NCBI GenBank assembly: GCA_006503475.1
Contig: RSEH01000163.1
Span: forward strand, 1-64,000
Direction: 5' to 3'
From: Stentor roeselii
Taxonomy: Eukaryota > Ciliophora > Heterotrichea > Heterotrichida > Stentoridae
DNA: 64,000 bases
Position numbers and translations under genes: made by a program. The notes beneath the pieces were generated by a model, which was not told the DNA's origin, did not search any database, and saw only the letters and a program-made list of their open reading frames with translations. Positions 3,371 to 51,066 of the stretch are shown here, piece by piece. Position 1 is the stretch's first letter. Every line of letters starts with the position of its first letter.

Positions 3371-3409
3371 TTTTTCAAATTTTTTTGTGTTTTTTCTCAT
3401 TAAAAATGT

Positions 3410-25288: not shown

Positions 25289-28069
25289 ATGGATGCCCTT
25301 ATCCCTAATTCAAGAGAAAAGATTAAAACTCAAATATTGGCTGATACCGAAACACAAGAACTATTAGGAGAGGTATTTGCTAGTGTGTACTCAGAAATAC
25401 TAAATATAGTCAATAGCTCAGTATCAGCCTCATCCACATCGAAACATAAGATTATTTTTGGTGGAATTAATCTTAATTATAACGAATCTGATGATTTAGA
25501 AATAGATGTATCAGGATTTACTCAAAAAATCACTCCTCACGGGCTCGCTGAAAATAAACTAATAGAAAAATTATCTAAAAAAAAAATGAAAATTGAAGTC
25601 TTGAAGCTGAAATTTCAAAATTTAATTAGGTTTGCAGGTGATATATCAGAAGAGATGTGCGAAGATTTAAGGATATTAAATGATCTACTGATAGCAAAAT
25701 CTAAGCCACAGAATGCAATAGAGTATAAAAATGAAAATTCTACATGTTGTGAATTAAGTACGATAGTTAGCACACAAATAGAAAAAAATCTATATAGCAA
25801 TATTAAAAATCTTAAATCACAAAATGGACAACTGATTACAATAAAATATAATAATCAATCAGAAAATGCACAATCAAATGGATTGAGTTTTGGAAACATT
25901 GAAATTGATATTAATCAAGAAACAGAACAACAGAAAATATTGAGGACAGATATAGAATATCACAAGTTACTATTAAACTACTGGAGAAAGGTATTGCTAG
26001 AAGTGAAAGTAGATGAAAATACTAAAATTCAAAGATATTCAAAAATATGCGAAAAAGGAGTACCTTTATATTATTCTTCTGATGAGTTTACCTTGATTGG
26101 ATATCACAAAGATGATGTATGGTATGATTGTATTTATGAAGAATTTAATGGAACTAAGATTTTTGGGAAATTTATAAATGGTGAAATATATGGTAAAGGG
26201 AAGAAAATGTTAAGTGAAGGCGATTATTTTTCTGGTGAGCTATTTGAAGATAATACTGCAGTTGGTAAAATAGTTAAACCGAGTCAAGGAATAAAAATTG
26301 TATCTAAATTTATTATAAAAAGTGAACAAAATCAAAATATATATTTAAGAACTGGTTATTATAAAATTTTTAAATTTAAAAAACTTACAAAGGAAGGAGA
26401 GGACAATGGAGAGATATTCTCAGGCACTATTTATGAAAATGAGTTATATAAAACAGGAACCTGGAAGAATAATAAACCTATAAAGGTAGTTGTTCATTAT
26501 TCTAAAGAAAAAAAAATGGAGGCTGAGCAAAAAGAAGAAAATCTTTGGTATTACGTAAAAAAAAATAATGATATTATAGAATCTTATTTTTATCTAGATG
26601 AAAATAATGACTATCAAAAAGAATATTATTCACTTGAGAATAATAAAAAAACCTGGAAAAGGTATGCAAATGGAAAATTAACTTGGATTAAATATATTGG
26701 TAAAAATGTGAAAAGTTTTGAAGTAAATGTAGTGGATAATAAATTTCATGGAAAAGGAAAATATAATTGCAAGGAATATAGCTATGAAGGAGACTATGAA
26801 AACGGGGATTTCAACGGTAATGGAGTTTGCATTTACAAAAAATCATCTCAAACTCAAACTGGAAAATTTTTAAATGGACGAATAGTAGAAGGGACTTTAA
26901 AGATAGGAGATCGTGAATATACAGGAAAATTTAATAATAAGGGAACAATAGATGGATATGGTGTGCTTAAGGGTCCAGGATATAAATATGAAGGACACTT
27001 TAAAGAGAGCAGATATAATGGTAAAGGGAAATACGATTCCGAGGAGTACAATTATGAAGGAGACTATGAAAACGGAGATTTCAATGGTAATGGAGTTTGT
27101 ATTTTCAAAAAATCATCTCAAACTCAAACTGGAAAATTTTTAAATGGACGAATAGTCGAAGGGACTTTAAAGATAGGAAATCGCGAATATACAGGAAAAT
27201 TTAATAATAAGGGAACAATAGATGGATATGGTGTGCTTAAGGGTCCAGGATTTAAATATGAAGGATACTTTATTGAGAGCGAATATAATGGTAAAGGGAA
27301 ATACGATTCCGAGGAGTACAATTATGATGGAGACTATGTAAACGGAGATTTCAATGGTTATGGAGTTTGTATTTTCAAAAAATCATCTCAAACTCAAACT
27401 GGAAAATTTTTAAATGGACGAATAGTAGAAGGGACTTTAAAGATAGGGGATCGCGAATATACTGGAAAATTTAATAATAAGGGAACAATAGATGGATATG
27501 GAGTGCTTAAGTGTCCAGAATATAAATATGAAGGATCATTCAAAGAAAGTGAATTTGAAGGCGAAGGAATAAAGATTGTTACAAATGGCCCGACATATGA
27601 AGGAACTTTCAGGAATGGGTCATTTGTTACAGGAAAACAATATAGAAATAACTATATTTATACAGGAGGTTTTTTGAATGGTTCAAGGAATGGAAAAGGA
27701 ATATTAGTTATCGATTCAAACTTTAAATTTGAGGGAAATTTCGTAAATGGAGTTCCATCAAGTGGAGTATTAATAGTCAATGATAGAACAAGAACTGGAA
27801 CATTCAATTCAGATTTTGAACTTGAAGGTCAAGGGGTACTAGTTGCTCCTAGTTTTACCTATAATGGAGGATTTAAAAGTGATCAATTTAACGGGCATGG
27901 AACTTTGAGATTTTCAGACGGTCGGACTTATGAAGGTTCTTTTTCAAATGGGGTTATAACAAATGGAACTGCAAAGATTTCAGATGTTACATTTACGGGA
28001 ACTTTTTCAGATTATAAGCCTTTGAGAGGAATACTTTCAAAGAATGGAAGCTCGTTTAATTATCCTTAA
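25289..28069 (+). CDS. Long MORN-repeat protein with recent internal triplication (M2)
   Basis: A 926-residue single exon. Residues 1-250 are the M-family domain (SKHKIIFGGINL, TQKITPHG, FAGDISEE, AIEYKNEN, YHKLLLNYWRK). MORN-type units start at about residue 285 and fill the rest. Between about 488 and 757 three 90-residue blocks are almost identical, each with YEGDYENGDFNGNGV or a close variant, then TQTGKFLNGRIVEGTLKIG, then YTGKFNNKGTIDGYGVLK. M1 has one counterpart of this block, so the extra copies arose in M2. The product is probably a membrane-lipid or scaffold-binding MORN protein. It is divergent from K4. Confidence 0.8.
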   Translation: MDALIPNSREKIKTQILADTETQELLGEVFASVYSEILNIVNSSVSASSTSKHKIIFGGINLNYNESDDLEIDVSGFTQKITPHGLAENKLIEKLSKKKMKIEVLKLKFQNLIRFAGDISEEMCEDLRILNDLLIAKSKPQNAIEYKNENSTCCELSTIVSTQIEKNLYSNIKNLKSQNGQLITIKYNNQSENAQSNGLSFGNIEIDINQETEQQKILRTDIEYHKLLLNYWRKVLLEVKVDENTKIQRYSKICEKGVPLYYSSDEFTLIGYHKDDVWYDCIYEEFNGTKIFGKFINGEIYGKGKKMLSEGDYFSGELFEDNTAVGKIVKPSQGIKIVSKFIIKSEQNQNIYLRTGYYKIFKFKKLTKEGEDNGEIFSGTIYENELYKTGTWKNNKPIKVVVHYSKEKKMEAEQKEENLWYYVKKNNDIIESYFYLDENNDYQKEYYSLENNKKTWKRYANGKLTWIKYIGKNVKSFEVNVVDNKFHGKGKYNCKEYSYEGDYENGDFNGNGVCIYKKSSQTQTGKFLNGRIVEGTLKIGDREYTGKFNNKGTIDGYGVLKGPGYKYEGHFKESRYNGKGKYDSEEYNYEGDYENGDFNGNGVCIFKKSSQTQTGKFLNGRIVEGTLKIGNREYTGKFNNKGTIDGYGVLKGPGFKYEGYFIESEYNGKGKYDSEEYNYDGDYVNGDFNGYGVCIFKKSSQTQTGKFLNGRIVEGTLKIGDREYTGKFNNKGTIDGYGVLKCPEYKYEGSFKESEFEGEGIKIVTNGPTYEGTFRNGSFVTGKQYRNNYIYTGGFLNGSRNGKGILVIDSNFKFEGNFVNGVPSSGVLIVNDRTRTGTFNSDFELEGQGVLVAPSFTYNGGFKSDQFNGHGTLRFSDGRTYEGSFSNGVITNGTAKISDVTFTGTFSDYKPLRGILSKNGSSFNYP
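26751..27560 (+). repeat. 270-bp tandem repeat, three copies, inside M2
   Basis: Units start at 26751, 27021 and 27291, exactly 270 bases apart, with only a few differences between copies (mostly in the first 30 and last 40 bases). The period keeps the reading frame and adds 90 MORN residues per copy. The near-identity points to very recent expansion or gene conversion. Confidence 0.9.
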
Positions 28070-28928
28070 TGATGAATAGCTTTGGAATAATTAAAGTTTC
28101 TTTAATAGATAGGATTTTCGTGAATTATTATGATATATTTAAATTTGTAATATTAGCTCTAGTTTTAAATGTTTTTTGAAATTCTTATCAATTTCTTGAA
28201 TTGTTTTTATTAGAGATAGAAAGTCTATATTTGTAATTAAGTAAACTAAATGGAAACTAAAAAATTATCTTAATTAGGAAAATCGAAAACTTTATCAAAA
28301 TAATCCCTAAAACCCAAGAATCGACCAATGAAAATATGAAAACCTTGTATATGAAACTCTATAATATGATCACTCAATCGATAAATTCATTAGTTGCATC
28401 TTGGTTTTATTCTGTCAAGACATATTTATTTGAAATACAGCATGCTTATATATAATATAGATCTAAAGATAGACTCTAAAATAATTATATCGAAAGACAT
28501 CATATATATAAAGATATAAATTTTTGTTTTTTCGATTAGTTCATATTTTCTTACTAACTATTACGATTATGTGTAACTTATTAAATCATTATAGAAATAT
28601 ATAGATATATTCCAAAGACCTTGTTAAGTAATCAAGCCTGTATTTCATATACAATAGATTTAGAAACTGATTAAATTATTTATCAAATGTAGACTCATAT
28701 AATTAGAGTTTGTTAATTAATTGGGTAATTAGATAAAAATATAGTTTTGTATTAAATTTTTACAATTTGACTTTAAGTGCCTATTTCTAAAGCACCAAAT
28801 ATGACTCAATGACTCTAAAAATCAATTTCCAAGCATAAAGTTTTCTAAGTTTTTTTTAATTAATATTATATTATCCAAATCTACCTTTTACCTAACTAAG
28901 AGATGCTTACTTTTTATTATATCATAAT
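28070..28928. other. Intergenic region
   Basis: About 860 bases between M2 and the WD40 gene. I see only AT-rich sequence and the promoter-like element at 28879-28890. Confidence 0.5.
28879..28890 (+). promoter_or_regulatory. Candidate core promoter element of the WD40 gene
   Basis: ATCTACCTTTTA, 50 bases upstream of the ATG at 28929. It resembles the K1 element GTCTACCTTTT. Confidence 0.45.
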
Positions 28929-31900
28929 ATGAATAAGGAAGAAACAAATTTGAACGAAGAATCTATTCCCGAAAGCAGCATTGACTCTAAATTTTTGGAT
29001 GATGAAATCGAAAATAATCAATTCATAAAACATAATTTTTTGAAATATTCTAAAAAAGTGACAATTAGTCAATCGATAAATCACTCTTGGCCGTTGAAAG
29101 CTTTAGAAATAACTAAAAATAATACATGTGGCATAAGATATTCAGCTTGTGGTAAATTTATAGCAACTTCCGAACTCAACTTTATTAATATCTGGAATGC
29201 AAAAGAATACAATAAAATGTTTTCTCTTTATGGCCATTTAAAAAAAGTTTCTTGTCTTTCTTTTAGTCCTAATAGAAAGTATTTAGCATCTGGTTCTCAT
29301 GATAAAGCACTTAAAATTTGGAACATGCACCAAAAGAAAGAAAAGTATACCATCTATGGCAAAAGCAAAATAGTTGACATATCGTATTGTCCGAAGGGTA
29401 TATATTTGGCTTCATGCTCTGCTGATAAGGTTATTATAATATGGAACTTATTGGACAAAACAGAAAAAATTATATATAGAGGAGACTTAGCTTCAACTAT
29501 AGAATATTCTCCTGATTCACTTTATTTAGCAATAGGGTTACAAAATAGTTGTTTTAAACTATTCAAATTAGAAACAAAAGAAAATTTTTATTTAAAAGAA
29601 CTCTTATGCATCTCTTTTGCGCCAGATAAAATTCATATTGCTACTGGTACTGTTGACCAGAAAATTAAAATCATGGATATTAATAATTTTAATGAAGTTT
29701 TAACATTTAAAGGACATTTTTCTTTGTGTTTATCATATTCATTAGAGGGTAATCTACTTGCTTCAGGACAATATGATAAAAGTGTTATCCTTTGGAATAT
29801 AAAGAAAAAGGGAATAGAATTCATTTTTTACGGTCATTTTTCACAAGTTACGAATATTTCTTTCAGTCCAAATAGCCGTTTTTTCGCAACATCATCTTTA
29901 GATGGAAATATAAAAGTTTGGAATATCAAAGAAAAAAAAGAAGAATCAAATCTAAATGGCCACACCTCAGCAGTGTCTTGCATTTCGTTTAGTCCGAATG
30001 GACTCATGTTGCAACAGGATCATTTGACAAGACTGTAATAGTTTGGAGGTTGAAAGATAGAAAAAAACTATTTATTCTAAACGGACACACTGATCGTATT
30101 TATTCATTAACATATTCCAGAGAAGGTAATAAACTAGCAACAGGATCAATTGATAAATCTATAATTATTTGGAATATGAATAAAATAGGAATTTATATTA
30201 AACTAAAGGATCATTCATCAACTGTGACTGGGCTTGATTTTAGTATTAATGAAAAACTTTTGGGTTCGTGCTCATGGGATAAAAATGTTAAAATTTGGAA
30301 TGCTAATAGCGGAGAAAAGATACTCAATATTAATTGCGAGCATCAATTAAATGGTTTATTATTTTTACCTGATATGAATTATATTGTAATTATTTCATCA
30401 GACAAAAATATAATAGTCTGGAATATAAATAAGAAAAAGGAAGAGTATATACTTCAAGGTCATCGATCATCAGTAGTTTGTGTGAAACTCTCACCAAATG
30501 GAAGATATATTGCAACAGGATCTGAGGATAAAACAGTAAAAATTTGGGATTTGAATGAAAAAAAATCTATATCGACATTTGAAGCGCATTTTTCAACAGT
30601 ATCCACAGTAGCTTTCTCACCTAATGGAGTTTTTTTAGCATCAGGATCATGGGATTGTAAGATAAAAATTTGGAATATCATAAAAAAAAGGCAAGAATCT
30701 ACCCTTAATAGCCATTCTGATATTATCAGTAGTTTGGCATATTCTGTAGATGGATGTTATCTAGCATTTGCTTCTTCAGCAAGTAACTTGGAGATATGGA
30801 ATATTCAAGAATATACTGAAGAATATGCTTATGATGGGTTTTTTAAATTGGCATATACGAAAGATGAAAATTGTTTTAATATGACTTCTAGAACAGGTTT
30901 AAAAAACCTTGGATTTTACACAGAAATAAGAAATTCGGATTATTCTTCTCAAACCAGATTTTTATGCTCCTTTAGTGGTAGATTCTTTGCTAGTTATTCT
31001 CAAAATAACGGAATAAAGATTATAAAACTCTCTGAACCTTTTGATGAATTCTTCTTCATTCATAAAAATTGCGAGTTTAATCACTGTTTGTGTTTTTCTT
31101 ATAATGAAAAATATATTGCATTAGGATGCTCTACAATTGTAAGATGTTGGAATATTCATGAAAAAACTTTGGATTACACTTTTGAGGACCACTCAGATTT
31201 AATAACATGCATATCATTTTCTGTAAACAATGATTTACTTGCTGTTGGCTGCACTAACAAGGAAATAAAAATTTGGAGAATCTTTGAACAGAAGGTGGAA
31301 AAGGTATTAAAATTAAATGAATTTCAAGTTGATTCATTGTCTTTTTCTTCAAATCATATTCTTTTTACAGCAATATCTCATAATAAGGGTTTGCTTATTT
31401 GGAATCTATCATCAAATGAATTAATTTTTAATATTGAAAGTAAAATAATGTGCTCTAGAATTTGTCCAGATAATATTTTTTTAGTTGTTGGATATAAAAA
31501 TGGGAAAATTGTATTTTATAATATATTAACAAAATCGAAGGTTTTTGAATTATCATACTTTACATTAGTAAATCCATGCATTCATTTATTATTTACACGT
31601 GATGGAAAGTTTATTTTAGCTTCAAACAAAGATGAAACATACCAAATATCTTTTATAAAAAAATTAAGTTTCTTACTTGATGAATATTTATCAATCAGCG
31701 TACGAAAAAGGAAAAACATTAAAAAATTGCATAAAGACTCAAAGGTTGTAGTTATTCTTAATAGCCTACTCAAAAAATATCCAAAAAGTAAATTTGAGTT
31801 AGAAAAAAGTTATTCTAAGCTAGTATCTAAGTTACTAGTGAAAGATGATTTTAAAAATTCAAATTCTCAAGCAAAATGTATTTCTAGTTATTTTTTTAAA

Positions 31901-32995
31901 TTTATTGAAATGGGAATCAGACTTAACTTTATAAGTTTCAAAGCTAGACAAGTTTTATATGATTTTTTTTTAAAACACGAAGATACTGAATTTAACACTG
32001 AAGATAAATATGAATTACAAATTTTGATATATTTGATGCATTCAAATCTAAATGCAAATATCAAATCGAAAATCAATATTTGTATCAAGCGATTATTCAA
32101 AAAAGAAATTTTTGAGTTAAAATTAGAGCAAAATTCAAATTTTTATTCGTGTTTTCACAGACAGAAGCTAATAGATTTAAAGGATATGCAATTAAATAAA
32201 ATAAAAACAACTAAATCAGATGGATTTTACATTCATCATTATAGGTCAAATAATTCACAATATGCTATACTTATAAAAAAATATGTTTTAAAAAAAGATT
32301 TAAATGTAAATTTTCGAGAAAAAATAATACAAGAAATTATTAAAGAAGCGAATTGCTATGATGTACTCAACAGAAATACACCAAAAGAATTTTTTATATG
32401 CAAATATTTTGGATGTAATAGCTCAAAGAATAGCTTTTCAGTTGTCATACAAGACTATGGGCAAAATTTAGTTGATTTTATTAAAGAAAACAGAGAAAAT
32501 AAATTTTCTTCAATCATAAATACAAAAATATATAGTATCATTAAGAGTTTGCTAAATTCTTTTATATTTATGGAGACTAAAAATATTTTGCATCGACGAA
32601 TTTGCCCTTCTTCATTTCAGATAGATAAAAACTTTCAGCTAAAACTTAATGATTTTTTATATTCAGCGATAAAACAAGATAATCAATGGCATGAATCTAA
32701 TAAAGCATTACTACCTAAAGGTAACAAAAATTACTTATCCCCAGAAGAAATCAGTAATATAAATGTTTTAAATTTGGAGCAATGTGAAATTTATTCACTG
32801 GGACTAGTGCTTCTTGAACTGATATTTTCTAGGGAGATTTCAGAAATGGTAACAAAATTAGATGATTTATTGGATGAACTCAGAAATACAAAAAATCTCA
32901 AGGGTCTGAAGAAAATTATTAAAATTATGCTATCACCAAATCCAAAAAATCGTTTGAATTTTAGGCTGATTTATGATTCATTAGTAGCATTCTAA
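28929..32995 (+). CDS. WD40-repeat protein with C-terminal pseudokinase; one frame break near 30006
   Basis: About 18 WD40 units (WNI/WNA/WNM ends with LASGS.D) run from about 29110 to 31540. Two frames make up the gene: the first stops at 30036-30038 and the second is open from before 30010 to 32995. The join lies inside one WD40 unit. The text CISFSPNG in frame 1 continues as VATGSFDKTVIVW in the other frame, consistent with one missing base near 30004-30008. The rest is intact, so either a sequencing or assembly error or a very recent break is likely. A protein-kinase fold follows (about 32230-32990): a candidate Lys in YAILIKKY, HRD replaced by HRR and its Asn by Ser (HRRICPSS), DFG replaced by DFL, and LSPEE for the APE region. 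Lack of the catalytic Asp suggests a pseudokinase. WD40 arrays are protein-binding platforms. Confidence 0.75.
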
Positions 32996-33710: not shown

Positions 33711-36700
33711 ATGAATTGTGCCATTTCTTATTCATCAGAAAGTATAAAGAACTTCATCTTACACAGTCCTGACACCCAACGTTTAATAAACGATAAATTG
33801 AATTATACAATCTCAGAAATTAAAAGTATAGTCACCATATCAGTGAGATCCTCAGTTGCATCGGAAGATATTATAAGTTTTGGAGGGATTAAACTTTTCT
33901 ATGACGATTCACTTGATTTGAATGTAAATGTTTCTGGATTGAATCATAAAAAACAACCTTGTGAATATAATGAAAAAAAACTGATACAACAAATATCTGT
34001 ACAACAAATTGAGATTGACACACTCAAGTTGAAATTTGAAAAATTGATTACATTTGCAGGATATTTGTTAGAAGAACAGTGTGAATACTTACAGAGATTG
34101 AGTGATTTTATGATTTCAAGCTCTAGTCCAATTAAAGGAATAAATTTTAAAAATGAAAATCCTACAAATGATGATTTTAGTTCACTTATAAACCATATTA
34201 TTCAAGAAAATTTAGTAGAAGGTTTAAAATCTCTTTTAAAAGAAAGCGAACACGTAATAAATATTACACATAAAAAAAATCAAGAAAATACAGCTTGTGG
34301 ATTGCATTTTGGAAATATTGAAATTATAATTATTCAAGAAACAGAACAACAAAAATTATTAAAAAAAGAAGCAATTTATTACAAGTTATTATTAATATAT
34401 TTAAAAACAGTACTTAAAGAAGAAATAAATACCGATTATAATGCTACAATAAAAAAATATTTTAAAATTTGTGAAAAAGGATTACCTTCGTGTTATTATA
34501 CTGATTTTGTTTCCATAATTGGCTATCAAAATGATGCAATGCTATTTGAATGCATATACGAAGACTTCAAAGGTAGCAAAATTGTAGGAAATTTTATTAA
34601 AGGTCAGATTATTGGTAAAGGAAAGAATTATTTAAGTGATGGAAATTACTTTTGTGGAGATATAATTGAAAATTGCTCTGAGATAGGAAAGATTGTTGAT
34701 TCGAGTAAGAGGATTAGAATAGATTCAAATTTTATTATTGATGAAACCGAACTTTTGGATACTGCTAATCGAATATATAAACTCATTTCTCTTCAAGAAG
34801 AAAGTCAAGTCAATAATAATTACTATGTCAAATCATTAGCTTATTTTTACTATTTTGTTAATCAGACAATCAAAATCACTACTAATTCAAACTTTAGTAA
34901 ACTTCTCAAGTATATTCACAGAAAACTAAATAAAATGCATCTAGCCAAAAAAGAGCTATTCAAAATGATTAATATTTTAATGGAAAGAAAATCAAGAAAA
35001 AAAGTTTTAAATTTAGATCCGAAAGACTATAAACCTATTGAAAATTTAAATAAAGATTTTTGTAATAAATTTGTAAAGACCTATTTGAATCTAAGCACCC
35101 AAGAATTTTCCTCTCTACATAAGCTAAAAAGGGATTTAAAAAATGACTCTAGATATTTAATGATAATTATAAAAAAAAATCTGTCTACTTTTATAATTGA
35201 ATCAATACTTAAAGAATATAATAAAGATTTTAAGCTTCTTACTAAAGAAGGTTTTAAAGAAAATAATAGCCACCAAGAAGAGACTTTTACTTATTTAAGT
35301 TCGATAATCAGAGATGCTGAAGCTGGAACTTCTTTAATTTTTTATGAAATTGATTTTATTTATAGCTCTTTAGATGATTTATTTAACCAAAAATTTTCGG
35401 CTGAAGGAGAAAATGAATACTGTCAAATATTACTCAAAGATTCTCTTTATAAAAAATTCTTAGTTCACAAAAATTTCAAAGTTGTAGTTATAATCAATGA
35501 TGATGACACTATTAATAAGGTGGACTCGCAATTGTTCAACCTTTTTGAAAAACATTACATCGGAATAAATGATATACTTGGAGATGAAAAGTACAAAACT
35601 ATTTCAGATGATCTTAATAATTGGATTAAGCGAATTTTTAATATTTCCATAACAAGTCCAGTAAACGTGACTAGTGTGATTCCTACTTTAAGTAATGATA
35701 CAATATACTTCATGACTCAGCTAACTATAGAAGAAATGAAAAATAAACAGAAAAAATATGAAGATATTTTTCCGATAATTAAGTCAAAGATTATAGAAAT
35801 GTCAAGCTTTGAAATTGTTTTATTATGTAGAGAGAATAAATTAAACAAAGATGAAAAAAAATTCATAATTAGTGAATGGAATAAAAAGAATAATATAACG
35901 TTAGAAGAAAGACTCAAATCTGTCAAGTATAATGACAATAAAAATTTAATTGTCATGACATATGATAAAAGTCTTATTTCGGATAAACTCTCTGAAAATC
36001 TAGGAAAATCATTAAAAATAGTTCAATTAAAAATGATCAATTCTGACCAAGAGTTCAATAAAATTTTAACTTCGTTTGTTGATTCAGTTATCGAAAATAT
36101 TATGCTGCTCGAATTAGATTATTCAAAAGAATATTCATCATTATATAATTTATTAAATATAATTGAATCAGCCATATCAAAATCACATCAAAGAAAAACT
36201 TGCTGTTTCATTCTAAGAATGAGAGTAAATGATAAATTAAGGGATCCGATAAGTTATTTGAAAAATTGGAAATGCATTTTTTATGATTATTTATCTGAAT
36301 TCAATTTAAATATCAATGAGAAATACGTATCAATAGATATACTTAATATAAGGAATATATTAAATTTTTTGAATTTTCGCGAACTTGTTGCTTGTACCTT
36401 GATTGATGCTTTTTCATGCATTAACTATGGATTTTTGAATTACAAAATGCAGTATGAAATAAATTTACATATTAGTAAAGTATGTACAATTCTTAAAAAT
36501 GATCCAGATTTATTTACATGTTTAGTCGATAGAACTTATAGAATCATTTCAGAAGATCAAAATAAATCTATGAATTGGACAAAAAGTATCTTTCAAAATA
36601 AACTTGCTGTTGATGAAGAAGAAAATTCAAAAAAATGTTCTTCATTATTCTTTAGAGAAGAAATTTTGAAATATTTGGCATTATTAATCTATTCTATTGA

Positions 36701-39700
36701 ATCAGACTTAGGGTTTAATTTCATGAAATATACCTCTGATGAAATACCAATACATTTGATTAAAATCATCTGGAAAAAAAAGTTAGAAGCTAAAAATATT
36801 ATCACTCATAAGATATTTACATTAAGAGAACCTACTTTATTAGTCCACACACAGCCAGATATTATCACCCCATTTATTATTGATGAAAGAAAATTATTCG
36901 ATTCATTTTTTGAAAGAAAATTGAAGCAAGGTTTAAATATAAATTTTGATCTTGAAAATGAATTGAATTTTTATATTGAAAGAAATAGCATGATTCTTAA
37001 TATCGAAGAAATAAGAAATTCTGAAGAAGTTTTAAAAATATATATGAAAGACTTTTTGAAGGCTTTGCTAAAATTTAATAATCTTAATGGATATTTGATA
37101 AATATTATTATACAAATACTGTTCAGTTCTAACAATATCCTGAATAATACTAAAAAAATCATTTTTATAAAGGATCATCTTAAAATAATTGAATTATTGA
37201 ATAAAATATATAACAGCATCGATAATCTTGCATTTACTGAAAAAATCTCATTTGAAAAAATTGATAATTTAGTAATCAACTCGGAAAATGAAATAAATGA
37301 AATGCTGAGGAATCTTTTAGAATTATCTTTAGAAATAATATTAGATTCTCAACATGATAAAAAAATACATGAAGCTTATAAAAAAGTTCTTGTTGAAATT
37401 AAGGATCAGATAATCGAAAACAATTTGAAATTAAAGCAAAATATTCTTAAAAAATTGAACTTTTGGATTAGGTTTTTAGACTTTTGTAAAGAAAAAGTTG
37501 ATATTTTGAAGCTATGCGAGGTAATTAAAGATAAAGAATATTTCAAGAATCAAGTTTTTCAATACTTTGTGCATCAAATAATAAATTCTTCAGAAACAAA
37601 AACAAATGAAAAATATTTTCAGTTTTACTTCTACGAACTGATAATGGAAGAACAAGAATATAACTTTAATATCATAGTTTCAAAAATAGAATCGAATGAT
37701 TCATGGAAATTTTCAAATAATCTTATAAAAAAAATTCTAAAAATATCAAATTTGAGTGAAACAATAATAAAATTTGAAATGAATCAAGGTAAAGTTGATT
37801 TATTTACTTCAAATGACTTTAAAGCGCTGGCCAGGATTGATCAGAATATATACATTTCAAAAAGGAACATTTTCAGTGTTTTATTAATGAACGAAATTAA
37901 AAAAATTACTTTAAATGTTAAAACAGATAAAATTATAATACTTTTTAAACGATATTTAATTATACTTGAATCAAAAAATCTTCGATTCAAAGAATTAAGT
38001 CAACTAATCGCATTATCTAGGATTAAATGTATTCTTGATTTTCTTTGCGAAATAATTATAAAAAATGATTGTACTGAAGAAGAAAGTAGTTTTATTCAAG
38101 AAATTATTTTTGTTTTGAATGAGAGAAACATGAAATTATTCTATCTTTATATTGTTAAAATACTAAAATCAAAAAAGAAACTTTCTTTATCAAAAATCGA
38201 AAAAATGATGAATAGGCTTGGGATTAAATCATCTTTAGACTCAGAACATAAATTACCAGAAGATATCGAGATATTTCCTTATTATGATGATGAAACTCAT
38301 GATTTTGAAAAATTAACTGAATATTTAAGAAATATAGAAAAAAACTCAGAATTGATTATTGAGATGATTGAGGACGATTGCAAAAATTCAAAAAAAAGAT
38401 TTATTATTTTGACTGCATTTTTAAATGAATTTTATATCAAACATAGAGAAATTGATTTTAAAAATGAATATACTATAAATTGGTTTAGAGCAAATAAGGA
38501 TAGATTTAGAAAAGCAGGAAATATGTTTGTGGAATTAATTTCAAGGTTAATTCAAAACTTCCCTGATAATTCACCATTGTATTTAAAAATAGAAGAAAAT
38601 TCAAATGAATTCATTAAAAAAATATCAATATGTTTTTATTTGTGCTTTGTTATTGCTTTCAGTACTGATTTAAATCCCTTTTCAAGTATAGTAATAGACA
38701 CAAATGGTTTCGCTAATCTCGAATTATTAAATTCTTATTACATAATCGGTATAGAATCTAATTTTTTATATCAATACCATAAATTTCTTCAGGAAAAATT
38801 TGAATCATATCAAAATAAAGGAGATTATAATTCAGGAACACAGAGTGAAAGTTTTGTAATATGTTCATTCGAATGTGAATTTATTTATGTAATTTCGAAT
38901 TGTGATGGTCCAATAAAGGTAGATATTTGCAGTAACTGTTTTAAAAATATTGGTGGAATAAGTAATAAACTTTGTGAAACAGACAGAGGACACAGATATA
39001 TTACTAAAGAAGAAGCTAAGAGGATAAATAATTCTGTTATTTCAAGAAATCAATCAAATCCTGAAAAAGGATATTTACTAAATATAAATAGTCTCGAGAC
39101 TGTTAATAGAGAGTTAAAAAACCATCTATCAAATGATATATTACTTTTATTTTGTCATTCATTTTTATCTTACTTGTTTTACTCTGATTTTATAGATAAA
39201 GATGCTTTAAAACTACTTATTTCATATAAAGGAGATCAAATGGAAGATGATTTAAATAAAAAAACAGATTCATTATTTTGTAATCTAATAAGATACTTTG
39301 AAGAAAATACCTATTCTCAACTGCTATCAATTATTTCAGAATTACCTAATTTCATAAAAGATTATCCACATCCTTTCTCAGAATTTATAGATAGAGATAA
39401 TTTCGAGAAAAACTTCGAGGATCATTTCTTTAATCCTCATTATATGCACGAGATAAAAAATTCCTACAAAAAGAAACATTCAAGAAAAAGTTACTTTCGT
39501 AAAATTATTGAAGAAAAAGAAATTCCTGAATATGAATTTGCAAGTTATTTCAACATACTATCGGATCCATCTTTAATAAACTTTAACATGAATTTGATTC
39601 CGAAAGAAAAAAGTTTGCACATATTAAACTTTTTCCTTGAAAATAAATCTGGCATTGAATCCTTGAGATTACTTTACCCAATCCTCGAATTTAGTAATTA

Positions 39701-40940
39701 TGCTGTTAAAAAGTTTTCTCTTACTTTATCAAGAAGAGAGTCAGAGGCTAAATCAATAAAAGAGTATATAGATTCAGATGAAAAGCTAAGAACTTTATTC
39801 ATTAAATTTAAAGAATGCTGGAAAATTTTGGATTTGGATTTACAAATTTGTTGTCATCGAATAGAAAAATCTAAGAAGATACAAATCACTGAAAATACAA
39901 AGCTTTGCTATCTTCTCTGTGATCAATATTCATTTGAAGTTTATCAAATATTTGCTGCTATTTCAACATTGATAGAAATTCACAATTCAGTTGTTTCTCT
40001 TGTAAAATCAGATAAAACATCTATGCTGTATTTAGACAACTTGAAGCATGATGATATAGTATCATTTCCTTCAGACCTTGAAAATATATTATCTGAAAAT
40101 TCAATAAATCATATTGAGTATGGAAGGGGCAATGAAATAATTTATAACTTTTATGATTTAAATGAAACTTTTAAAGAACTGATTATCAACAAAAAATTTA
40201 TTGATGAATTCAGCATTCCTTTTATATGTTACGGCTTTGAATTACATTTTATTTATTCTGATCTAATCACAGAAATGAGAAACAGATATCAACAGGAAAA
40301 TCTGAATGAAGATGATGAATTAAAAATAAGAAAAATATCTAAAAATATACTCAAATCCAATACTCAAGATGAAAGTGAAGTAAATTTATTTAAATATTAT
40401 CATATACTTGATAGACTTATAATCTATTTGAAAAATACTGAAGTTAATAGAGAATGGAAAATTAATCAAATTATTTCACAAATGATTCAATTCTATGTTC
40501 CATTGAAGGCTGATGATTATAAGATTTGTGAAGAGATTGGAAACCTGAATATTAAATATTTGAATCATATATATGAAATTATTGAAGAAGATGTTTATTA
40601 TTTAAAGCTAGATGATATATCTGATTTATATAAAAATAAAATTCCTGATTCAGAATTTGCTCAGTTACAACAGTTTGTAAAATTTATTGCTAAGGATTTC
40701 GGTGAAAATTCTATTAAAGAGTTTAGTAATGGATTGAAAAGGTTTATACTCAGAAACATGAATTTCGAGTTAGCTTGTAGTCATCCGATTGCTAAATTTA
40801 TACTTGAGGCTTATTTCAACATGAATATGGCCTCGAATTTAAATATTATCATTTCTAAGTTTCCAAAAGAAATATTCATCAGCCATATTGTGAGTTGTGT
40901 AACCGCAATCGATAATATTATTAACGATAATTTAGAATAA
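33711..40940 (+). CDS. RNF213-like protein with M-family/MORN N-terminus (M3)
   Basis: A 2409-residue single exon. Residues 1-250 match the M1/M2 N-terminal domain (ISFGGIKL, LKLKFEKLITFAG, YYKLLL), then a few MORN-like units to about 345. From about 480 it follows RNF213: IFYEIDFIYSSLDDLFNQ and VVVIINDDDTINK, then LFNLFEKHY (about 540-617), correspond to NLYESLYDALNQ, LIVIEEKDVVYK and LINRLEKHY of the AAA4/5 part. At about 1718-1760, CSFEC, then NCDGPIKVDICSNCFKNIGG, corresponds to the RZ zinc finger (CPNGH, then ECGRPMEQSICIDCHAPIGG). The last 640 residues also follow the RNF213 C-terminal domain, ending FPKEIFISHIVSCVTA. The earlier AAA units with Walker motifs and the RING finger are not seen. 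The RZ His is Cys, and GH further on is GY. RNF213 is a ubiquitin ligase that coats bacteria and lipid droplets. Comparison is from memory, by eye. Confidence 0.8.
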   Translation: MNCAISYSSESIKNFILHSPDTQRLINDKLNYTISEIKSIVTISVRSSVASEDIISFGGIKLFYDDSLDLNVNVSGLNHKKQPCEYNEKKLIQQISVQQIEIDTLKLKFEKLITFAGYLLEEQCEYLQRLSDFMISSSSPIKGINFKNENPTNDDFSSLINHIIQENLVEGLKSLLKESEHVINITHKKNQENTACGLHFGNIEIIIIQETEQQKLLKKEAIYYKLLLIYLKTVLKEEINTDYNATIKKYFKICEKGLPSCYYTDFVSIIGYQNDAMLFECIYEDFKGSKIVGNFIKGQIIGKGKNYLSDGNYFCGDIIENCSEIGKIVDSSKRIRIDSNFIIDETELLDTANRIYKLISLQEESQVNNNYYVKSLAYFYYFVNQTIKITTNSNFSKLLKYIHRKLNKMHLAKKELFKMINILMERKSRKKVLNLDPKDYKPIENLNKDFCNKFVKTYLNLSTQEFSSLHKLKRDLKNDSRYLMIIIKKNLSTFIIESILKEYNKDFKLLTKEGFKENNSHQEETFTYLSSIIRDAEAGTSLIFYEIDFIYSSLDDLFNQKFSAEGENEYCQILLKDSLYKKFLVHKNFKVVVIINDDDTINKVDSQLFNLFEKHYIGINDILGDEKYKTISDDLNNWIKRIFNISITSPVNVTSVIPTLSNDTIYFMTQLTIEEMKNKQKKYEDIFPIIKSKIIEMSSFEIVLLCRENKLNKDEKKFIISEWNKKNNITLEERLKSVKYNDNKNLIVMTYDKSLISDKLSENLGKSLKIVQLKMINSDQEFNKILTSFVDSVIENIMLLELDYSKEYSSLYNLLNIIESAISKSHQRKTCCFILRMRVNDKLRDPISYLKNWKCIFYDYLSEFNLNINEKYVSIDILNIRNILNFLNFRELVACTLIDAFSCINYGFLNYKMQYEINLHISKVCTILKNDPDLFTCLVDRTYRIISEDQNKSMNWTKSIFQNKLAVDEEENSKKCSSLFFREEILKYLALLIYSIESDLGFNFMKYTSDEIPIHLIKIIWKKKLEAKNIITHKIFTLREPTLLVHTQPDIITPFIIDERKLFDSFFERKLKQGLNINFDLENELNFYIERNSMILNIEEIRNSEEVLKIYMKDFLKALLKFNNLNGYLINIIIQILFSSNNILNNTKKIIFIKDHLKIIELLNKIYNSIDNLAFTEKISFEKIDNLVINSENEINEMLRNLLELSLEIILDSQHDKKIHEAYKKVLVEIKDQIIENNLKLKQNILKKLNFWIRFLDFCKEKVDILKLCEVIKDKEYFKNQVFQYFVHQIINSSETKTNEKYFQFYFYELIMEEQEYNFNIIVSKIESNDSWKFSNNLIKKILKISNLSETIIKFEMNQGKVDLFTSNDFKALARIDQNIYISKRNIFSVLLMNEIKKITLNVKTDKIIILFKRYLIILESKNLRFKELSQLIALSRIKCILDFLCEIIIKNDCTEEESSFIQEIIFVLNERNMKLFYLYIVKILKSKKKLSLSKIEKMMNRLGIKSSLDSEHKLPEDIEIFPYYDDETHDFEKLTEYLRNIEKNSELIIEMIEDDCKNSKKRFIILTAFLNEFYIKHREIDFKNEYTINWFRANKDRFRKAGNMFVELISRLIQNFPDNSPLYLKIEENSNEFIKKISICFYLCFVIAFSTDLNPFSSIVIDTNGFANLELLNSYYIIGIESNFLYQYHKFLQEKFESYQNKGDYNSGTQSESFVICSFECEFIYVISNCDGPIKVDICSNCFKNIGGISNKLCETDRGHRYITKEEAKRINNSVISRNQSNPEKGYLLNINSLETVNRELKNHLSNDILLLFCHSFLSYLFYSDFIDKDALKLLISYKGDQMEDDLNKKTDSLFCNLIRYFEENTYSQLLSIISELPNFIKDYPHPFSEFIDRDNFEKNFEDHFFNPHYMHEIKNSYKKKHSRKSYFRKIIEEKEIPEYEFASYFNILSDPSLINFNMNLIPKEKSLHILNFFLENKSGIESLRLLYPILEFSNYAVKKFSLTLSRRESEAKSIKEYIDSDEKLRTLFIKFKECWKILDLDLQICCHRIEKSKKIQITENTKLCYLLCDQYSFEVYQIFAAISTLIEIHNSVVSLVKSDKTSMLYLDNLKHDDIVSFPSDLENILSENSINHIEYGRGNEIIYNFYDLNETFKELIINKKFIDEFSIPFICYGFELHFIYSDLITEMRNRYQQENLNEDDELKIRKISKNILKSNTQDESEVNLFKYYHILDRLIIYLKNTEVNREWKINQIISQMIQFYVPLKADDYKICEEIGNLNIKYLNHIYEIIEEDVYYLKLDDISDLYKNKIPDSEFAQLQQFVKFIAKDFGENSIKEFSNGLKRFILRNMNFELACSHPIAKFILEAYFNMNMASNLNIIISKFPKEIFISHIVSCVTAIDNIINDNLE

Positions 40941-43535: not shown

Positions 43536-46055
43536 ATGATTAGAGAACTTGCAAATTTTTTTTCAGATTATGATAAAGATATTAAGATTGTGTTGATTGA
43601 TGAATATAAGTCGAACAGGCAACAATTTTCAATTTTTATGGTAAAAACTATATAGAGTAATTATTCATATTCTGATAGCACCAGGCTTTTATATAATTCC
43701 GAAGTTTTTTCAAGAGATCAAGATGAATCAAAAATCAAATTAAACAGAAGCGATATTGATGAAGATCAAAATTTAGTTATTTCATGCTGTTCAATGAATC
43801 TATCAGACTTTTGTGAAGAAATAGCTGATCTAATTGAAGAAAGAAGCAATGAAGTATTGACAATTTTTATATTTGAATCTAATAACTACCAAAAATATAT
43901 CACCGAAAAGATTGAACTATTAAAAAAAGCTGAAAAATTAATAGTAGTTTATGAGGATAATAACTTTTCTGATTCAAGAAAGCTCTCGATAAAAGATTTT
44001 TGTGAATCAGATGATCTAAATTTCAAAATATTAAAAAAGAAAATACTCAAGGATCCTCATAAATTTTTTAATCAGATACTTTCAAATTATTTAAAATTTG
44101 ATAGTACGAATACAGATCATTCAACCTTGAAAAACTTATCTAATTACTCGATAGAAGAAAATAAAACAAACTATGATTTTGATGATAAAAATAATGTTCA
44201 GATTAGTTTTCTAAATTCGATAGAGCAAAAAGATAAAATTGAAAACCTAAACGTAGATGAGAGCATTTTAGAAAAATTCGAATACTGCACCCAACAAAAA
44301 AGAAGCGTATCACCTTTGATTATTAATTGTTCTAAGGATGCTGAATTAATTAAAGAAAGTTTTATAGATTATTCAAACAAACAGTTAACTCTATTACCAG
44401 AAAATTTGAGTCAAAATAAACTTTTAGACATGGATAGATATGAAAGCTATATTAGCATTGCAAATGACGATGCTGAACTTAGGCAAATTCTTATAGTAGG
44501 AGAAAATGGGAGCGGAAAAACAACATTTATAACAAGACTTTTAAACCTTCTGACAGATAATAATATAGAAAATCAAAAAGATATTGATGAATTATTAAAA
44601 AATAATGAAATTTTCAAGAAGGAATTCAGTTTTGGAATATCATATTTTTACTTCGATAAAAAAACATCAAAACACTATGAAATTATTGAATCTCCAGGAT
44701 TGATACCCTTACTAGGAAATAAACAAGATATAGGAAACATAGAAAAAATAATCCAAGGTATTGGATATTTGATTAAAAAAAACATTAGTATAATTTTCAT
44801 TCAAAAAGCTGACTATTTTCATTCATGCAGTTCTATTTCAACTGTTCAGAATTTTATTTTGAATCATCAGAAGGATAAGACTAATAATAAATTACGGATC
44901 TATTATGTTTTTACTTTTTATGCAGGTGAACTGGTTTTCAACTTAGATGATTTAGAATTTGATCCAATAATGCATGTAAAAGTTAATCTTACGAAATCTA
45001 AAGGAGTAGGTATTAAAAAACTTGATAAATATAGGAAAAATTGGAATCAATCTTATTTAAAAATAAGTAAACTAATTAATAATATAAATCAAGAACTTTC
45101 TGAAGAGGAATTTTGTTTACAATTTGAGAATAGATCTAGCCCTAATAAACAGATAATGAAATTAATCAAGGATTCTGCAAAATTAATAGCGAAAAAGTAT
45201 AAGAATAACCATGAGTTTAAAATTGAAAGCACAAATACCTTGCACATATATTGTCTGAATAATAAATATGAAATAATTGAACTATTGATAAAATTTATAT
45301 TCGATGAGGAACAAATAATTGAATCACAAAAAGAATTTTTAAATGCCTATAATCAACTCCTAAAGAAAGACAAAATGATTGTTACCACTCAGAAACTATG
45401 TGAGAATTATAAGGATCATTTAGTTAAACCAGTTCCATACTTTTGCATATTTGACAATATAAAAGTCATCAATTTTTTAACGAATTTGAAAAAGATAGAG
45501 AGTGATAATTATTATTTAATTAATGAAAATTTGGAAAAATGCTCAGAGAAAACTGTTACTGAATGGAAAGAATGCAATGGTAATTTATCATGGCCTTTTA
45601 TAAGAAAAAAAAAAAATTCAGTTTTTAAGTGTTTAAAATGTAAAGGCGACTCACAAAGTCATTTTTTAACACGAATCAAATACTTTGATCAATTCGATGA
45701 TCAAATATTTCCTAAGTGTGTAAATCCCAAAGACCATTCCACTTTATTAGATAATCAGTGTAAAATATATATAAAAATACAAGACCCTGAAATTTTAGAA
45801 TCAAAAATAAACTCGGAATTTACTCTAAGAAAAGAATTGATTATAAAACAAAGTATGCACTATTTTGCTATACTAAGTAAAGATTTTAGATTAGTATGCC
45901 ATTCAAAGCAGATAAATATACTGGATTACAATTCAAAAAGAGAATTATTATCACAATTGAGTAAAGAAAATAGTAGTATTGATATAAGCAAGGACTACTT
46001 AATAATAGATCATTATTATAAAAACAACTTTGAAAAGAAATATTTTGCGTTTTGA
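43536..46055 (+). CDS. L-type large AIG1-related GTPase (L1), one 15-nt intron
   Basis: Exons 43536-43640 and 43656-46055 give 834 residues; the intron GTAAAAACTATATAG (43641-43655) removes an in-frame TAG. The start MIRELANFF aligns with the L3 and L4 starts. The N-terminal domain (1-150) shares VLIDEYKSNRQQFSIF and the CCSMNLSDFCEEIADLIEER pattern with its paralogs. L1 lacks the CCHC finger and coiled coil seen in L2-L4. The GTPase core has Walker A GENGSGKT (about 314), G3 with Glu for Asp (ESPG, about 377), FIQKADYFHSC, and TFYAG (about 453) in place of a standard G4. The C-terminal part has a Cys/His module (CLKCKGDSQSHF, about 665) and a final domain (DYNSKRELLSQL). It ends with TGA and leads the L1-A1-B1 cassette. 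Confidence 0.8.
43641..43655 (+). other. 15-nt intron of L1
   Basis: GTAAAAACTATATAG lies in phase 0 between ATG and AGT, after the conserved RQQFSIFM. Removing it joins two conserved parts of the L N-terminal domain. The position matches the introns of L3 and L4. Confidence 0.85.
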
Positions 46056-46210
46056 GCGTTCAATAAGTTAATGCTTATTATAATTTAGCATTGAATTATA
46101 TTGATTTATTTATATATTGTTGAATATTTATATAATAAACCAAATTCAACTCATTTAAATCTGATGCAGTCTTACTATATAATCTATATAAAAATATATA
46201 TTTAAACAAA

Positions 46211-46227
46211 TGTCTACTATAATAAAA
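46211..46227 (+). promoter_or_regulatory. Candidate core promoter element of A1
   Basis: TGTCTACTATAATAAAA, with GTCTAC 23 bases upstream of the A1 ATG. Confidence 0.55.
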
Positions 46228-46234
46228 ATTGTAA

Positions 46235-47620
46235 ATGTCCATAAAAGCCTTAAAAACAAATGAGCCTATTGAACCATACGACTACAGCTTATTACTTATA
46301 GGAGCAAGTGGGAATGGAAAATCAACATTTCTGAATACTTTTGCCAATTTTAACCTTTATAAAACTCCAATAAATCTAGTTCCGATTATATCATGCAAGA
46401 AATATCCTATAGTTCCATTTGAATATCAGGATGATCTTCCTGAAAAGAATGATCCTCAAACAGGCAAAAGCCAAACAAAGCATGCTCATTTCTATAAAAT
46501 CAGAAGTAAATACACCAAAAATAAAACCATTTTAATTGTAGACACTCCTGGACTTGCATCATCAGGTGGTGTAAATGAAGATGACTTGAATGTAAATACA
46601 ATAATCGATGCAGCTAGAAGAGTGAAAAGCTTCAATGCAATAATAATTCTAGAAAAATCCAGCACTAACAGACTGAATCCACTAATCGAATATAATCTGT
46701 TTAGAATCTCAGAGATCATACCTTTTGATTTTGAAAATAGATGTATTCTTGCTTTTAGTTTTTATACTGGAGATATTCTGTTTGAGGATGAATGGTTTCC
46801 TTTTCCGATACAATTTAAAATAAAATTAAACAACTCAATATTTTCTTTGTCAGGACAAGAATATAAAAATAAACAGAAAAAACTTAATGAGGCATTAATT
46901 ACATGGAAAAATCTTAAAAAATCATTCAAAAAATTTCTGTTGAAATTAGAAAATTTAAATAGCATCCCAACTGAGCAATACAAGGAATTGTTCAGGGCTC
47001 ACAATGAACTCAATATAAAATTTGCTGAGTATAAAGTTTTGATTGAAAATATCGAAAAAGTAAAACAATCTATTACCAGTAATCAAACCGAAAGAATAAA
47101 ATTAATGAGTTGGGAAACTACTGATTATTACAATACAATGTGTCGTGAGCATAAAGTTATATGCCATGAGCGCTGTCATTTGAGTTTAAATGAACAAAAT
47201 GGTACTGACTATTTTAATAATTGTGCATGCATGAATATTGATAAAAAATGCAGAGTATGCAATTGTGGGTCATTTACTCATTTTCACATATTTAAAAAAC
47301 CTACAATCCAGTCAAGAACTATTGAAGAATTTCTGGGTAGTTTATCAATCAATCCTAGCGTTAATACAAAGAATGAAATAGATCAAGCACTTAATGCAAA
47401 GGAAACGGAATTGATTTTTGAATTAGTCAAGGTAGAAACTTCAATATCAAGAATTTCACCAAATTATAAAATTTCAGACTATGTTAAGAAAGCGATTCGT
47501 CATCTTGATTATACTATAGAGCTAAATAAACCCGGAACAAATATTGAAGATGTATTAATTCAAAAAAGAGTTTTTGAAAGACTGGCAAATGGATGGGGAA
47601 AACAATTTCAAAGAACTTAG
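46235..47620 (+). CDS. A-type AIG1-like GTPase with Cys/His-rich tail (A1)
   Basis: A 461-residue single exon. Walker A is GASGNGKSTFLN (about 24-35). A G2-like segment GKSQTKHAHFY (about 76-86), G3 VDTPGLASSGG (about 101-111) and STNRLNPLIEYNLFR follow, then SFYTGD with FEDEWFPFP (about 173-188) in the G4 region. A helical segment leads to the tail (about 305-355): CREHK, CHERCHLSLNE, CACM and CRVCNCGSFTHFH, which probably bind zinc. The short CxCG..TH end of this tail resembles the C-terminal modules of B1 and the L proteins. Intact paralog: A2 at 49375; dead paralog: 675-2037. The next gene, B1, begins 65 bases after its stop in the same direction. Confidence 0.8.
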   Translation: MSIKALKTNEPIEPYDYSLLLIGASGNGKSTFLNTFANFNLYKTPINLVPIISCKKYPIVPFEYQDDLPEKNDPQTGKSQTKHAHFYKIRSKYTKNKTILIVDTPGLASSGGVNEDDLNVNTIIDAARRVKSFNAIIILEKSSTNRLNPLIEYNLFRISEIIPFDFENRCILAFSFYTGDILFEDEWFPFPIQFKIKLNNSIFSLSGQEYKNKQKKLNEALITWKNLKKSFKKFLLKLENLNSIPTEQYKELFRAHNELNIKFAEYKVLIENIEKVKQSITSNQTERIKLMSWETTDYYNTMCREHKVICHERCHLSLNEQNGTDYFNNCACMNIDKKCRVCNCGSFTHFHIFKKPTIQSRTIEEFLGSLSINPSVNTKNEIDQALNAKETELIFELVKVETSISRISPNYKISDYVKKAIRHLDYTIELNKPGTNIEDVLIQKRVFERLANGWGKQFQRT

Positions 47621-47670
47621 ATTATTTATAAATGGATTCGCTTTATACAAAATATTTCTTATTAAATTTT

Positions 47671-47685
47671 AAATCTATAATAAAA
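47671..47685 (+). promoter_or_regulatory. Candidate core promoter element of B1
   Basis: AAATCTATAATAAAA directly precedes the ATG at 47686. It supports that ATG over the upstream one at 47632, whose extra 18 codons would overlap the element. Confidence 0.45.
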
Positions 47686-49041: not shown

Positions 49042-49374
49042 TGCCTTCGAGCTTTTATTATTATCTAATATAATTTTATACCTCTTAAATTTAATTTATG
49101 ATTAAAGATTGTTGTGTTATTATCAAGACATATGCTCATGATTTCATAATATCAATTTAATCCAAGAATTCTACTGTTCTTATCATAACATCAAACTATT
49201 AGTATCATGATTTATTATTTTCATTAAAATCCTATATAAAATATAATTATGAAGATTACAAAAATAATCTTCATTAGGATTGAAGATAATTTTCCATCCC
49301 ATATAATATTCCTAGGATAATATAAATATTAAGAATCCTTAATAAATGTTTGTCTATAAAGATTAATAATTATT
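49042..49374. other. Spacer between convergent B1 and A2
   Basis: 333 AT-rich bases between two 3' ends. No gene or structured element was seen. Confidence 0.5.
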
Positions 49375-50754: not shown

Positions 50755-51066
50755 ATTTTTTATAATAATACAATAGAGTAGTAATAGCTGTATCAAAAAT
50801 TTTAATTATATAGTCTATAGGATTATAAAAAATGTTTATTATTAGCAAGACTAGATTTATTACTTCAATATATGAAAAGATCAACAGAATACTCGATAGA
50901 ATTAAACAATTCTTGTAAGGCTTATATAAATTATTTCCTCAGTAGAAACTCTCTGTAATATTCTACCCTCCATATCGTTAATCTTTTCCCATACAATTCT
51001 AATCAAATAAGATAAAGGTACTTAACTAAAGAAATAATATAAAATTATATAAGTCTATATTATAAA
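50755..51066. other. Divergent spacer between A2 and L2
   Basis: 312 AT-rich bases. The only element noted is the GTCTATATTATAAA directly before L2, plus a lone GTCTATAG at 50813 that points away from A2. Confidence 0.5.
51052..51066 (+). promoter_or_regulatory. Candidate core promoter element of L2
   Basis: AGTCTATATTATAAA ends directly at the ATG at 51067. The same core stands before L1. If it is a promoter, the in-frame ATG at 51079 is the better start, as it leaves room for a short leader. Confidence 0.55.

What the first reader, a model, noticed from the sequence alone, without database searches (positions are those of the whole stretch)
33711..40940. RNF213-like protein fused to a MORN-family head, lacking RING and ATPase motifs
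Seen: the first 345 residues belong to the local M family (as in M1 and M2), and the rest follows RNF213 from the AAA4/5 segment through the RZ finger to the C-terminus. The Walker-bearing AAA units and the RING are not visible. In the RZ finger the His of the CPNGH-type pair is Cys (CSFEC), and the GH position further on is GY. Inference: a new head, possibly lipid-binding, replaces the dynein-like motor. Zinc binding could be kept as a four-Cys site, while the altered GH position may change ligase activity.
Basis: partly seen in the sequence, partly recalled or inferred. Interest (0 to 1): 0.85.

Follow-up and report, generated by a model that had tools for sequence, protein, structure and literature searches.

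The report
Motor-less RNF213 ligase with swapped head
A single-celled eukaryote carries a gene in which the ubiquitin-tagging half of the giant antimicrobial protein RNF213 has lost its ATP motor and one catalytic residue and been joined to the front end of a neighbouring gene, a natural experiment on what that ligase half can do alone.

Summary
The fusion is real: one 2,409-aa frame (33711-40940). Residues 1-343 are the head of a family for which a whole-genome search found three places, all in this window. Residues 344-2409 are 50% identical to the C-terminal part of a full-length RNF213-like paralogue, C187. Family profiles of the matching segments hit RNF213 (E 2.8e-38 for AAA4-lid to AAA6; 2.4e-15 for RZ to CTD). 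The join lies just after AAA4's catalytic motifs, so N-arm, AAA1-3 and the ATP sites are gone. The missing RING and the Cys-for-His zinc ligand are not special to the fusion: the paralogues examined share them. Special, and missed before: the RZ catalytic dyad is broken (Cys1731 kept, base His replaced by Asn1752); the AAA4-lid/AAA5 remnant changes much faster than in C187 (36 vs 4) while the rest does not (54 vs 49); the canonical one of C187's two CTDs is absent. Best reading: a selected, ATP-uncoupled RNF213 E3 scaffold with a new head that may still accept ubiquitin but transfers it poorly: regulator, decoy or slow ligase. Lipid binding is unsupported. No expression or assay data; head fold unknown.

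The parts
33711..40940 (+). Fusion gene P1, 2409 aa, single open frame
33711..34739 (+). M-family head (residues 1-343): non-MORN domain ~1-270 plus, by eye, about two degenerate MORN units ~280-326
   Evidence: model of low confidence
34740..35639 (+). Eroding motor remnant: AAA4 lid and AAA5 (residues 344-643; domain names inferred from the alignment to human); GLRD motif deleted between S393 and N394
35640..36320 (+). AAA6-like region (about residues 644-870), not accelerated; boundary approximate
36321..38846 (+). Hinge plus E3 core region (about residues 871-1712), no RING seen; boundaries inferred; most of this stretch does not itself align to mammalian RNF213
38847..39005 (+). RZ finger (about residues 1713-1765): zinc-ligand positions C1718, C1722, C1740, C1743; nucleophile position C1731; N1752 in place of the general-base His; RGH kept
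   Evidence: residue roles from PMC12075652 and PMC11549300 passages
39006..40937 (+). E3 shell and divergent CTD copy (CTD1); ends where C187's second, canonical CTD would begin
25289..28069 (+). M2: same head plus a long MORN array, 926 aa
17104..19047 (+). M1: same head plus MORN array, about 645 aa

Best explanation
A copy of the C-terminal part of a C187-type RNF213 gene was joined in frame to the front part of a tandem M-family gene, within its first few MORN units. The product is an RNF213 E3 scaffold without N-arm, AAA1-3 and the AAA4 catalytic motifs, so it cannot be switched by ATP as mammalian RNF213 is. Its RZ finger can probably still fold around zinc (four Cys) and still has the Cys that takes ubiquitin from the E2, but lacks the His that helps pass it on. 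It most likely acts as an attenuated, ATP-independent ligase or a ubiquitin/E2-holding regulator placed by the M head (with M1/M2 or their partners), perhaps tuning the full-length RNF213 paralogues. Shown: the fusion, its ancestry, the missing ATP sites, the broken dyad, the uneven rates. Inferred: zinc binding, E2 loading, reduced transfer, the head's role, the regulatory purpose.
For: Single frame with dN/dS 0.29 (tail vs C187) and 0.45 (head vs M2). Tail 50% identical to a full-length paralogue that has Walker A and B; P1 starts after them. Family link to RNF213 over two parts. RZ: zinc-ligand positions and Cys1731 kept, His to Asn1752; in mouse RNF213 C4462/H4483 is the dyad, H4483A lowers autoubiquitination, RING is dispensable for auto- and LPS ubiquitination, ATP binding activates (PMC12075652 passages). 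At family-conserved columns 36 P1-only vs 4 C187-only changes in residues 344-643 against 54 vs 49 in the rest (Fisher 1.6e-5; permutation over any segment p=0.0018): the orphaned motor erodes, the rest is held. E3 branch lengths 0.49 (P1) and 0.44 (C187).
Against: No expression, protein or assay data. The 344-643 window was set after seeing the profile, although the permutation test allows for any segment; with C106+C511 as the outgroup pair P1 also leads in the rest (33 vs 14), with the other three pairs hardly (49:40, 42:41, 47:37). The RZ itself changed faster (8 vs 1, p=0.04 uncorrected), which may mean loss of ligase function, and so did the head (68 P1-only vs 36 M2-only columns). The E3 model is too weak to check the active site (mean pLDDT 63, pTM 0.39) and RNF213 was not among the 50 matches shown. 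H4483A in mouse lowers rather than abolishes activity, and C4462S kept autoubiquitination, so the broken dyad may cost less than supposed. P1 lacks C187's second, canonical CTD, which could remove E2 docking altogether.
Confidence: 0.5

Rival explanations
1. Pure pseudo-ligase: P1 no longer moves ubiquitin at all and works as a scaffold or dominant-negative partner of full-length RNF213-like proteins.
For: Broken dyad; 8 vs 1 changes in the RZ; canonical CTD missing; by ungapped reading four other RZ regions lack both dyad residues and two more lack the His, so altered RZ fingers are kept in this genome.
Against: Cys1731 and the four zinc-ligand Cys are kept, unlike in C96, C57, C65a and C65b, which lack a Cys at the nucleophile position.
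Confidence: 0.25
2. Fully active, constitutive ligase: another residue (for example the RGH His1761) supplies the base, and the head targets it.
For: Gly-His of RGH is invariant in the 8 aligned sequences; P1's E3 part evolves at about the paralogue's rate.
Against: Six of 13 RZ regions keep the canonical His; no structural support for His1761 near the Cys.
Confidence: 0.15
3. Assembly chimera of an M gene and an RNF213 gene.
For: Only one assembly; no reads available.
Against: A search with 2647 residues of C187's N-terminal frame found no other N-half at C187-like (about 50%) identity: outside the widely conserved AAA3/4 part matches are 23-28%; no MORN tail is left over downstream of P1; the join is in frame; the faster change of the motor remnant suggests an old separation.
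Confidence: 0.05
4. Decaying pseudogene that happens to be still open.
For: Some motifs lost (GLRD, His); head, motor remnant and RZ all change faster than in the relatives.
Against: 2409 open codons at ~49% amino-acid divergence with dN/dS 0.29 (dS 1.26, near saturation).
Confidence: 0.05

Closest known systems
RNF213 (mysterin), mammalian AAA-E3 ligase (PDB 6TAX, 8S24)
   Same: Homologous AAA4-lid to AAA6, RZ finger, E3 shell and CTD through family profiles; nucleophile Cys and zinc-ligand positions
   Different: No N-arm, AAA1-3, ATP sites or RING; general-base His is Asn; zinc His is Cys; foreign head
Own-genome paralogue C187 (5139-aa frame, C187:3909-19328)
   Same: 50% identical over 2086 columns
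   Different: C187 has the N-terminal half with Walker A and B, an intact Cys/His dyad and a second, more canonical CTD
M1/M2 MORN proteins of this window
   Same: Head, 38-45% identity
   Different: They carry MORN arrays where P1 has the RNF213 tail
ZNFX1-type RZ proteins
   Same: RZ finger (relation as stated in PMC12075652 passages)
   Different: P1 has the RNF213 E3 shell around it; no helicase family in its Pfam scan

Membership tests
RNF213 giant AAA-E3 ligases | Homologous E3 part with RZ finger, shell and CTD | tested here: met
RNF213 giant AAA-E3 ligases | Dynein-like core with ATP-competent AAA3 and AAA4 | tested here: not met
   No Walker A; tail begins at human ~2907, after the AAA4 Walker B (E2845 by PMC11549300) and the ISNW stretch; GLRD deleted
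RNF213 giant AAA-E3 ligases | N-arm | tested here: not met
   replaced by M head
RNF213 giant AAA-E3 ligases | RING domain | tested here: not met
   by sequence only: no RING family in 8 of 8 tails by Pfam at E<=0.1; no CxxC in the 1000 residues before the RZ in 7 of 7 (C511 not among them). Fold test inconclusive
RNF213 giant AAA-E3 ligases | RZ catalytic Cys/His dyad | tested here: not met
   Cys1731 present, His position is Asn1752
RNF213 giant AAA-E3 ligases | RZ zinc ligands (C, H, C, C) | tested here: inconclusive
   four Cys at the four positions; binding not testable
RNF213 giant AAA-E3 ligases | ATP-activated ubiquitin ligase activity | not testable with these tools
   needs assay
MORN-repeat proteins | MORN repeats recognised by the family model | tested here: not met
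   0 Pfam families in residues 1-345 at E<=0.01; M1 and M2 do have them; weak MORN1 profile matches E 0.056-0.23, below an unrelated mannosidase at 0.0064
MORN-repeat proteins | Lipid or membrane binding | not testable with these tools
   no assay; literature doubts membrane binding (PMC7725318, abstract)

The most novel reading that the evidence does not exclude
A protist has evolved a natural ATP-uncoupled RNF213: the E3 scaffold was cut loose from its dynein-like motor, given a new locating head from a local gene family, and its transfer chemistry changed from a Cys/His dyad to Cys alone, as one member of a large RNF213 repertoire with graded RZ decay (intact, Cys-only, neither) that works as a set of ligases and their regulators in cell-autonomous defence.
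Probability: 0.2. Interest if true: 0.8.

Novelty: new variant of a known kind. Interest (0 to 1): 0.57.

Why it matters
[quoted passage not shown] A natural RNF213 tail whose E3 part stayed under constraint after the motor was lost, while the motor remnant changed faster, suggests that the E3 part has a use of its own and gives a smaller protein to test it on. The graded loss of RZ catalytic residues across one genome's RNF213 set may mark which positions matter.

Tried and rejected

Rejected: assembly chimera, pseudogene, two genes read as one (no stop between; the first Met of the tail lies inside it), lipid-binding head, RING loss as a result of the fusion. tblastn of C187 against the window without composition correction gave many hits of mostly about 19-26% identity to unrelated genes, read as composition noise. 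YN00 dN/dS failed in 4 of 4 pairs. Rows dropped: C460 was left out of all alignments because its RZ lies in a 443-aa frame and its longest frame (2100 aa) has no Walker A; C511 was left out of A6 and missed by the regex, and is read. Three of seven extra paralogue stretches (C310, C138b, C185) showed no RZ; they may have been cut at the wrong place and are not counted as losses. C65a has another Cys a few residues from the lost nucleophile position. Organism: no alveolin match; the L3 protein's best PDB hit 5xxb is, as recalled, Toxoplasma; a 15-nt intron-like insert in an EF-G gene suggests a heterotrich ciliate, but a length scan gave only 1 case at 15 nt against 0 in the control, and 2 at 14 nt against 0, so this stays tentative. 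Papers: searches; the RNF213+ciliate search (the word also matches 'ciliated') listed all 15 papers found, none on RNF213 of ciliates by title and abstract start. Seen: PMC7311170, PMC11549300, PMC12440826, PMC12075652 and PMC9942806 as passages only; PMC7725318 abstract and outline only.

Full report
WHAT IS THERE. Window 33711-40940 holds one 2409-codon frame from ATG to TAA under the standard code; TAA, TAG and TGA all end other frames here. The genome is a 44.4-Mb, 522-contig assembly; the window has 23-31% GC in 2-kb steps. With 8.8% stops per random codon an open frame of this length is not chance.

HEAD. Residues 1-344 as a query match three places in the genome at E<=0.001 (8 candidates scored), all in this window: P1 itself, M2 (45%) and M1 (39%). 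M2 and M1 go on into MORN arrays; P1 leaves the alignment at about residue 343, after roughly two MORN-like units judged by eye. Pfam sees no family in P1's head at E<=0.01, and only weak MORN1 and radial-spoke profile matches fall on residues ~286-323 (E 0.056-0.96, below an unrelated mannosidase at 0.0064). The rest of the head has no named fold (model mean pLDDT 47.8; no PDB match at E<=0.001).

TAIL. Residues 344-2406 align to residues 2786-4863 of the product of C187:3909-19328 (numbered from its first Met), with 1048/2086 identities. The genome has 13 places where one open frame of 4173-5139 aa matches both the tail query and the C187 N-half query (C185, with frames of 4301 and 3739 aa reported for its two parts, is not counted, and C54 and C231 matched only the N-half query). 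Among tail matches in frames over 1000 aa, P1's is the only one without an N-half match on the same contig. All 7 full-length products inspected carry a Walker A. A profile of 8 tails hits RNF213 structures at E=3e-78 in two stretches. Restricted to columns that P1 has, residues 344-1000 (7 rows) give E=2.8e-38 and residues 1150-2349 (8 rows) E=2.4e-15, the latter over RZ, shell and CTD only. The first corresponds to human about 2907-3451, after subtracting the 40 extra residues of chain 8s24, an offset I inferred from chain length. P1 alone or with C187 alone gives no such hit. The tail starts just behind the AAA4 Walker B and the ISNW...NR stretch (arginine-finger region, label recalled).

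WHAT IS NOT SPECIAL. No RING model matches any of the 8 tails at E<=0.1, and no CxxC occurs in the 1000 residues before the RZ in 7 of 7. In 13 RZ regions read (P1, C187, C9, C36, C138, C154, C106, C511, C460, C96, C57, C65a, C65b) the second zinc position, His in mammals, is Cys in 13 of 13. In mammals deleting the RING did not affect ubiquitylation of two bacteria, though it partly impaired that of T. gondii vacuoles (PMC11549300, passages); autoubiquitination does not need it (PMC7311170, passages).

WHAT IS SPECIAL. (a) The dyad. Mouse C4462/H4483 (human C4516/H4537) are nucleophile and general base; H4483A lowers activity, mutation of C4462 abolished it, but C4462S kept autoubiquitination (PMC12075652, passages). 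P1 has Cys1731 and Asn1752. Of the 13 RZ regions, by ungapped reading, 6 have both (C187, C9, C36, C138, C154, C511), 3 have Cys only (P1 Asn, C106 Tyr, C460 Ser), 4 lack the Cys and the His (C96, C57, C65a, C65b). C511 lacks the fourth zinc Cys (CPYD). (b) Uneven rates. At columns where at least 4 of up to 6 other paralogues agree, residues 344-643 show 36 changes in P1 only and 4 in C187 only; residues 644-2409 show 54 and 49 (Fisher p 1.6e-5). A permutation test that lets the segment lie anywhere gives p=0.0018; with four outgroup pairs the remnant gives 34:4, 33:4, 15:2 and 32:5, the rest 49:40, 42:41, 33:14 and 47:37, so one pair shows an excess in the rest too. The region is the AAA4 lid and AAA5 (inferred from the alignment; borders from PMC7311170 in mouse numbering). 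In it P1 has lost part of the family's DFYGLRDFY stretch, by position the AAA4 sensor-II motif (inference). The RZ shows 8 vs 1 (p 0.04, uncorrected). The head also changed more than M2's: 68 vs 36 columns with M1 as outgroup. In the E3 part branch lengths are alike, 0.49 and 0.44, with the P1+C187 pair at 100/100 (C511 is a long branch, and the letter make-up of P1 and C36 departs from the model). (c) C187 has two CTD copies; the second is nearer to five other paralogues (24-32% against 17-23% for the first; the reverse, 22% and 25%, in C511), and P1 ends where it would begin. In mouse the CTD docks the E2 (PMC12075652).

CONSTRAINT AND ORIGIN. dN/dS is 0.29 for the tail against C187 (dS 1.26, near saturation) and 0.45 for the head against M2 (NG86). 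No N-half with C187-like identity was found elsewhere (outside the widely conserved AAA3/4 part 23-28%), and no MORN remnant lies downstream of P1. So the join looks clean and, by its divergence, old. M1, M2 and P1 lie within 24 kb in a window with other diverged gene copies.

HOW IT PROBABLY WORKS. Mammalian RNF213 is switched on by ATP binding in the AAA core (PMC12075652, abstract and passages). P1 has no site for that. With the zinc-ligand positions and the nucleophile kept, it may still take ubiquitin from an E2; without the base, and without the canonical CTD, hand-over should be poor. Together with a conserved scaffold this fits a regulator, decoy or slow ligase placed by the M head. 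A dead pseudo-ligase is the main rival. The lipid-binding idea rests on the MORN name; the MORN1 study reports no evidence of membrane binding, interaction with single phospholipids, and dimerisation (PMC7725318, abstract), and P1 has hardly any MORN left.

LIMITS. No transcript, protein or assay data. Structure models were too weak to test the active site or the absence of a RING by fold. Domain borders in P1 are approximate.

VERDICT. A real gene fusion and a new variant of a known kind: RNF213-derived by descent, not an RNF213 AAA-E3 by architecture.

Noticed in passing
window 43656-62902: Nine ORFs (43656, 46235, 47632, 49375, 51043, 54275, 55349, 57664, 61058) are linked by BLAST into one diverged array. 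Of three scanned, one (47632) passes the MMR_HSR1 and GTP_EFTU cut-offs, the other two have only sub-threshold P-loop, AIG1, septin or dynamin matches; 46235 has no PDB match at E<=0.01.
   Followed up: partly
window 6353-8440 and 11789-13612: Two ORFs 66% identical to each other; a weak AIG1 match in the second only.
   Followed up: no
window 28896-32995: Two overlapping frames (28896-30038, 29993-32995) look like one WD40 protein interrupted by a frame change at about 30000; by eye the end looks kinase-like (recalled motifs).
   Followed up: partly
C187:3909-19328 (L021, L022): Full-length RNF213-like paralogue with two CTD copies in tandem, the second nearer to five other paralogues.
   Followed up: yes
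G000 contigs C9, C36, C57, C65, C96, C106, C138, C154, C187, C310, C511: Large RNF213-like set in one genome: 13 frames matching both halves, with graded loss of RZ catalytic residues in those read.
   Followed up: partly
C304 (1601-7499), C501 (6118-7572): RNF213-like fragments, short or with stops, probably decayed copies.
   Followed up: no
L037 (C157:39042-39878, minus): EF-G-like frame interrupted by a 15-nt GT...AG stretch holding a stop: possibly a tiny intron as in heterotrich ciliates.
   Followed up: partly
G000, many contigs: MORN repeats are very numerous: 1302 first-look candidates, 150 scored, 150 matched.
   Followed up: no
P1 residues 1845-1919: Weak sequence match to RAD51C (E 0.13 alone, 0.00086 with C187 in the profile); taken as chance.
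   Followed up: no
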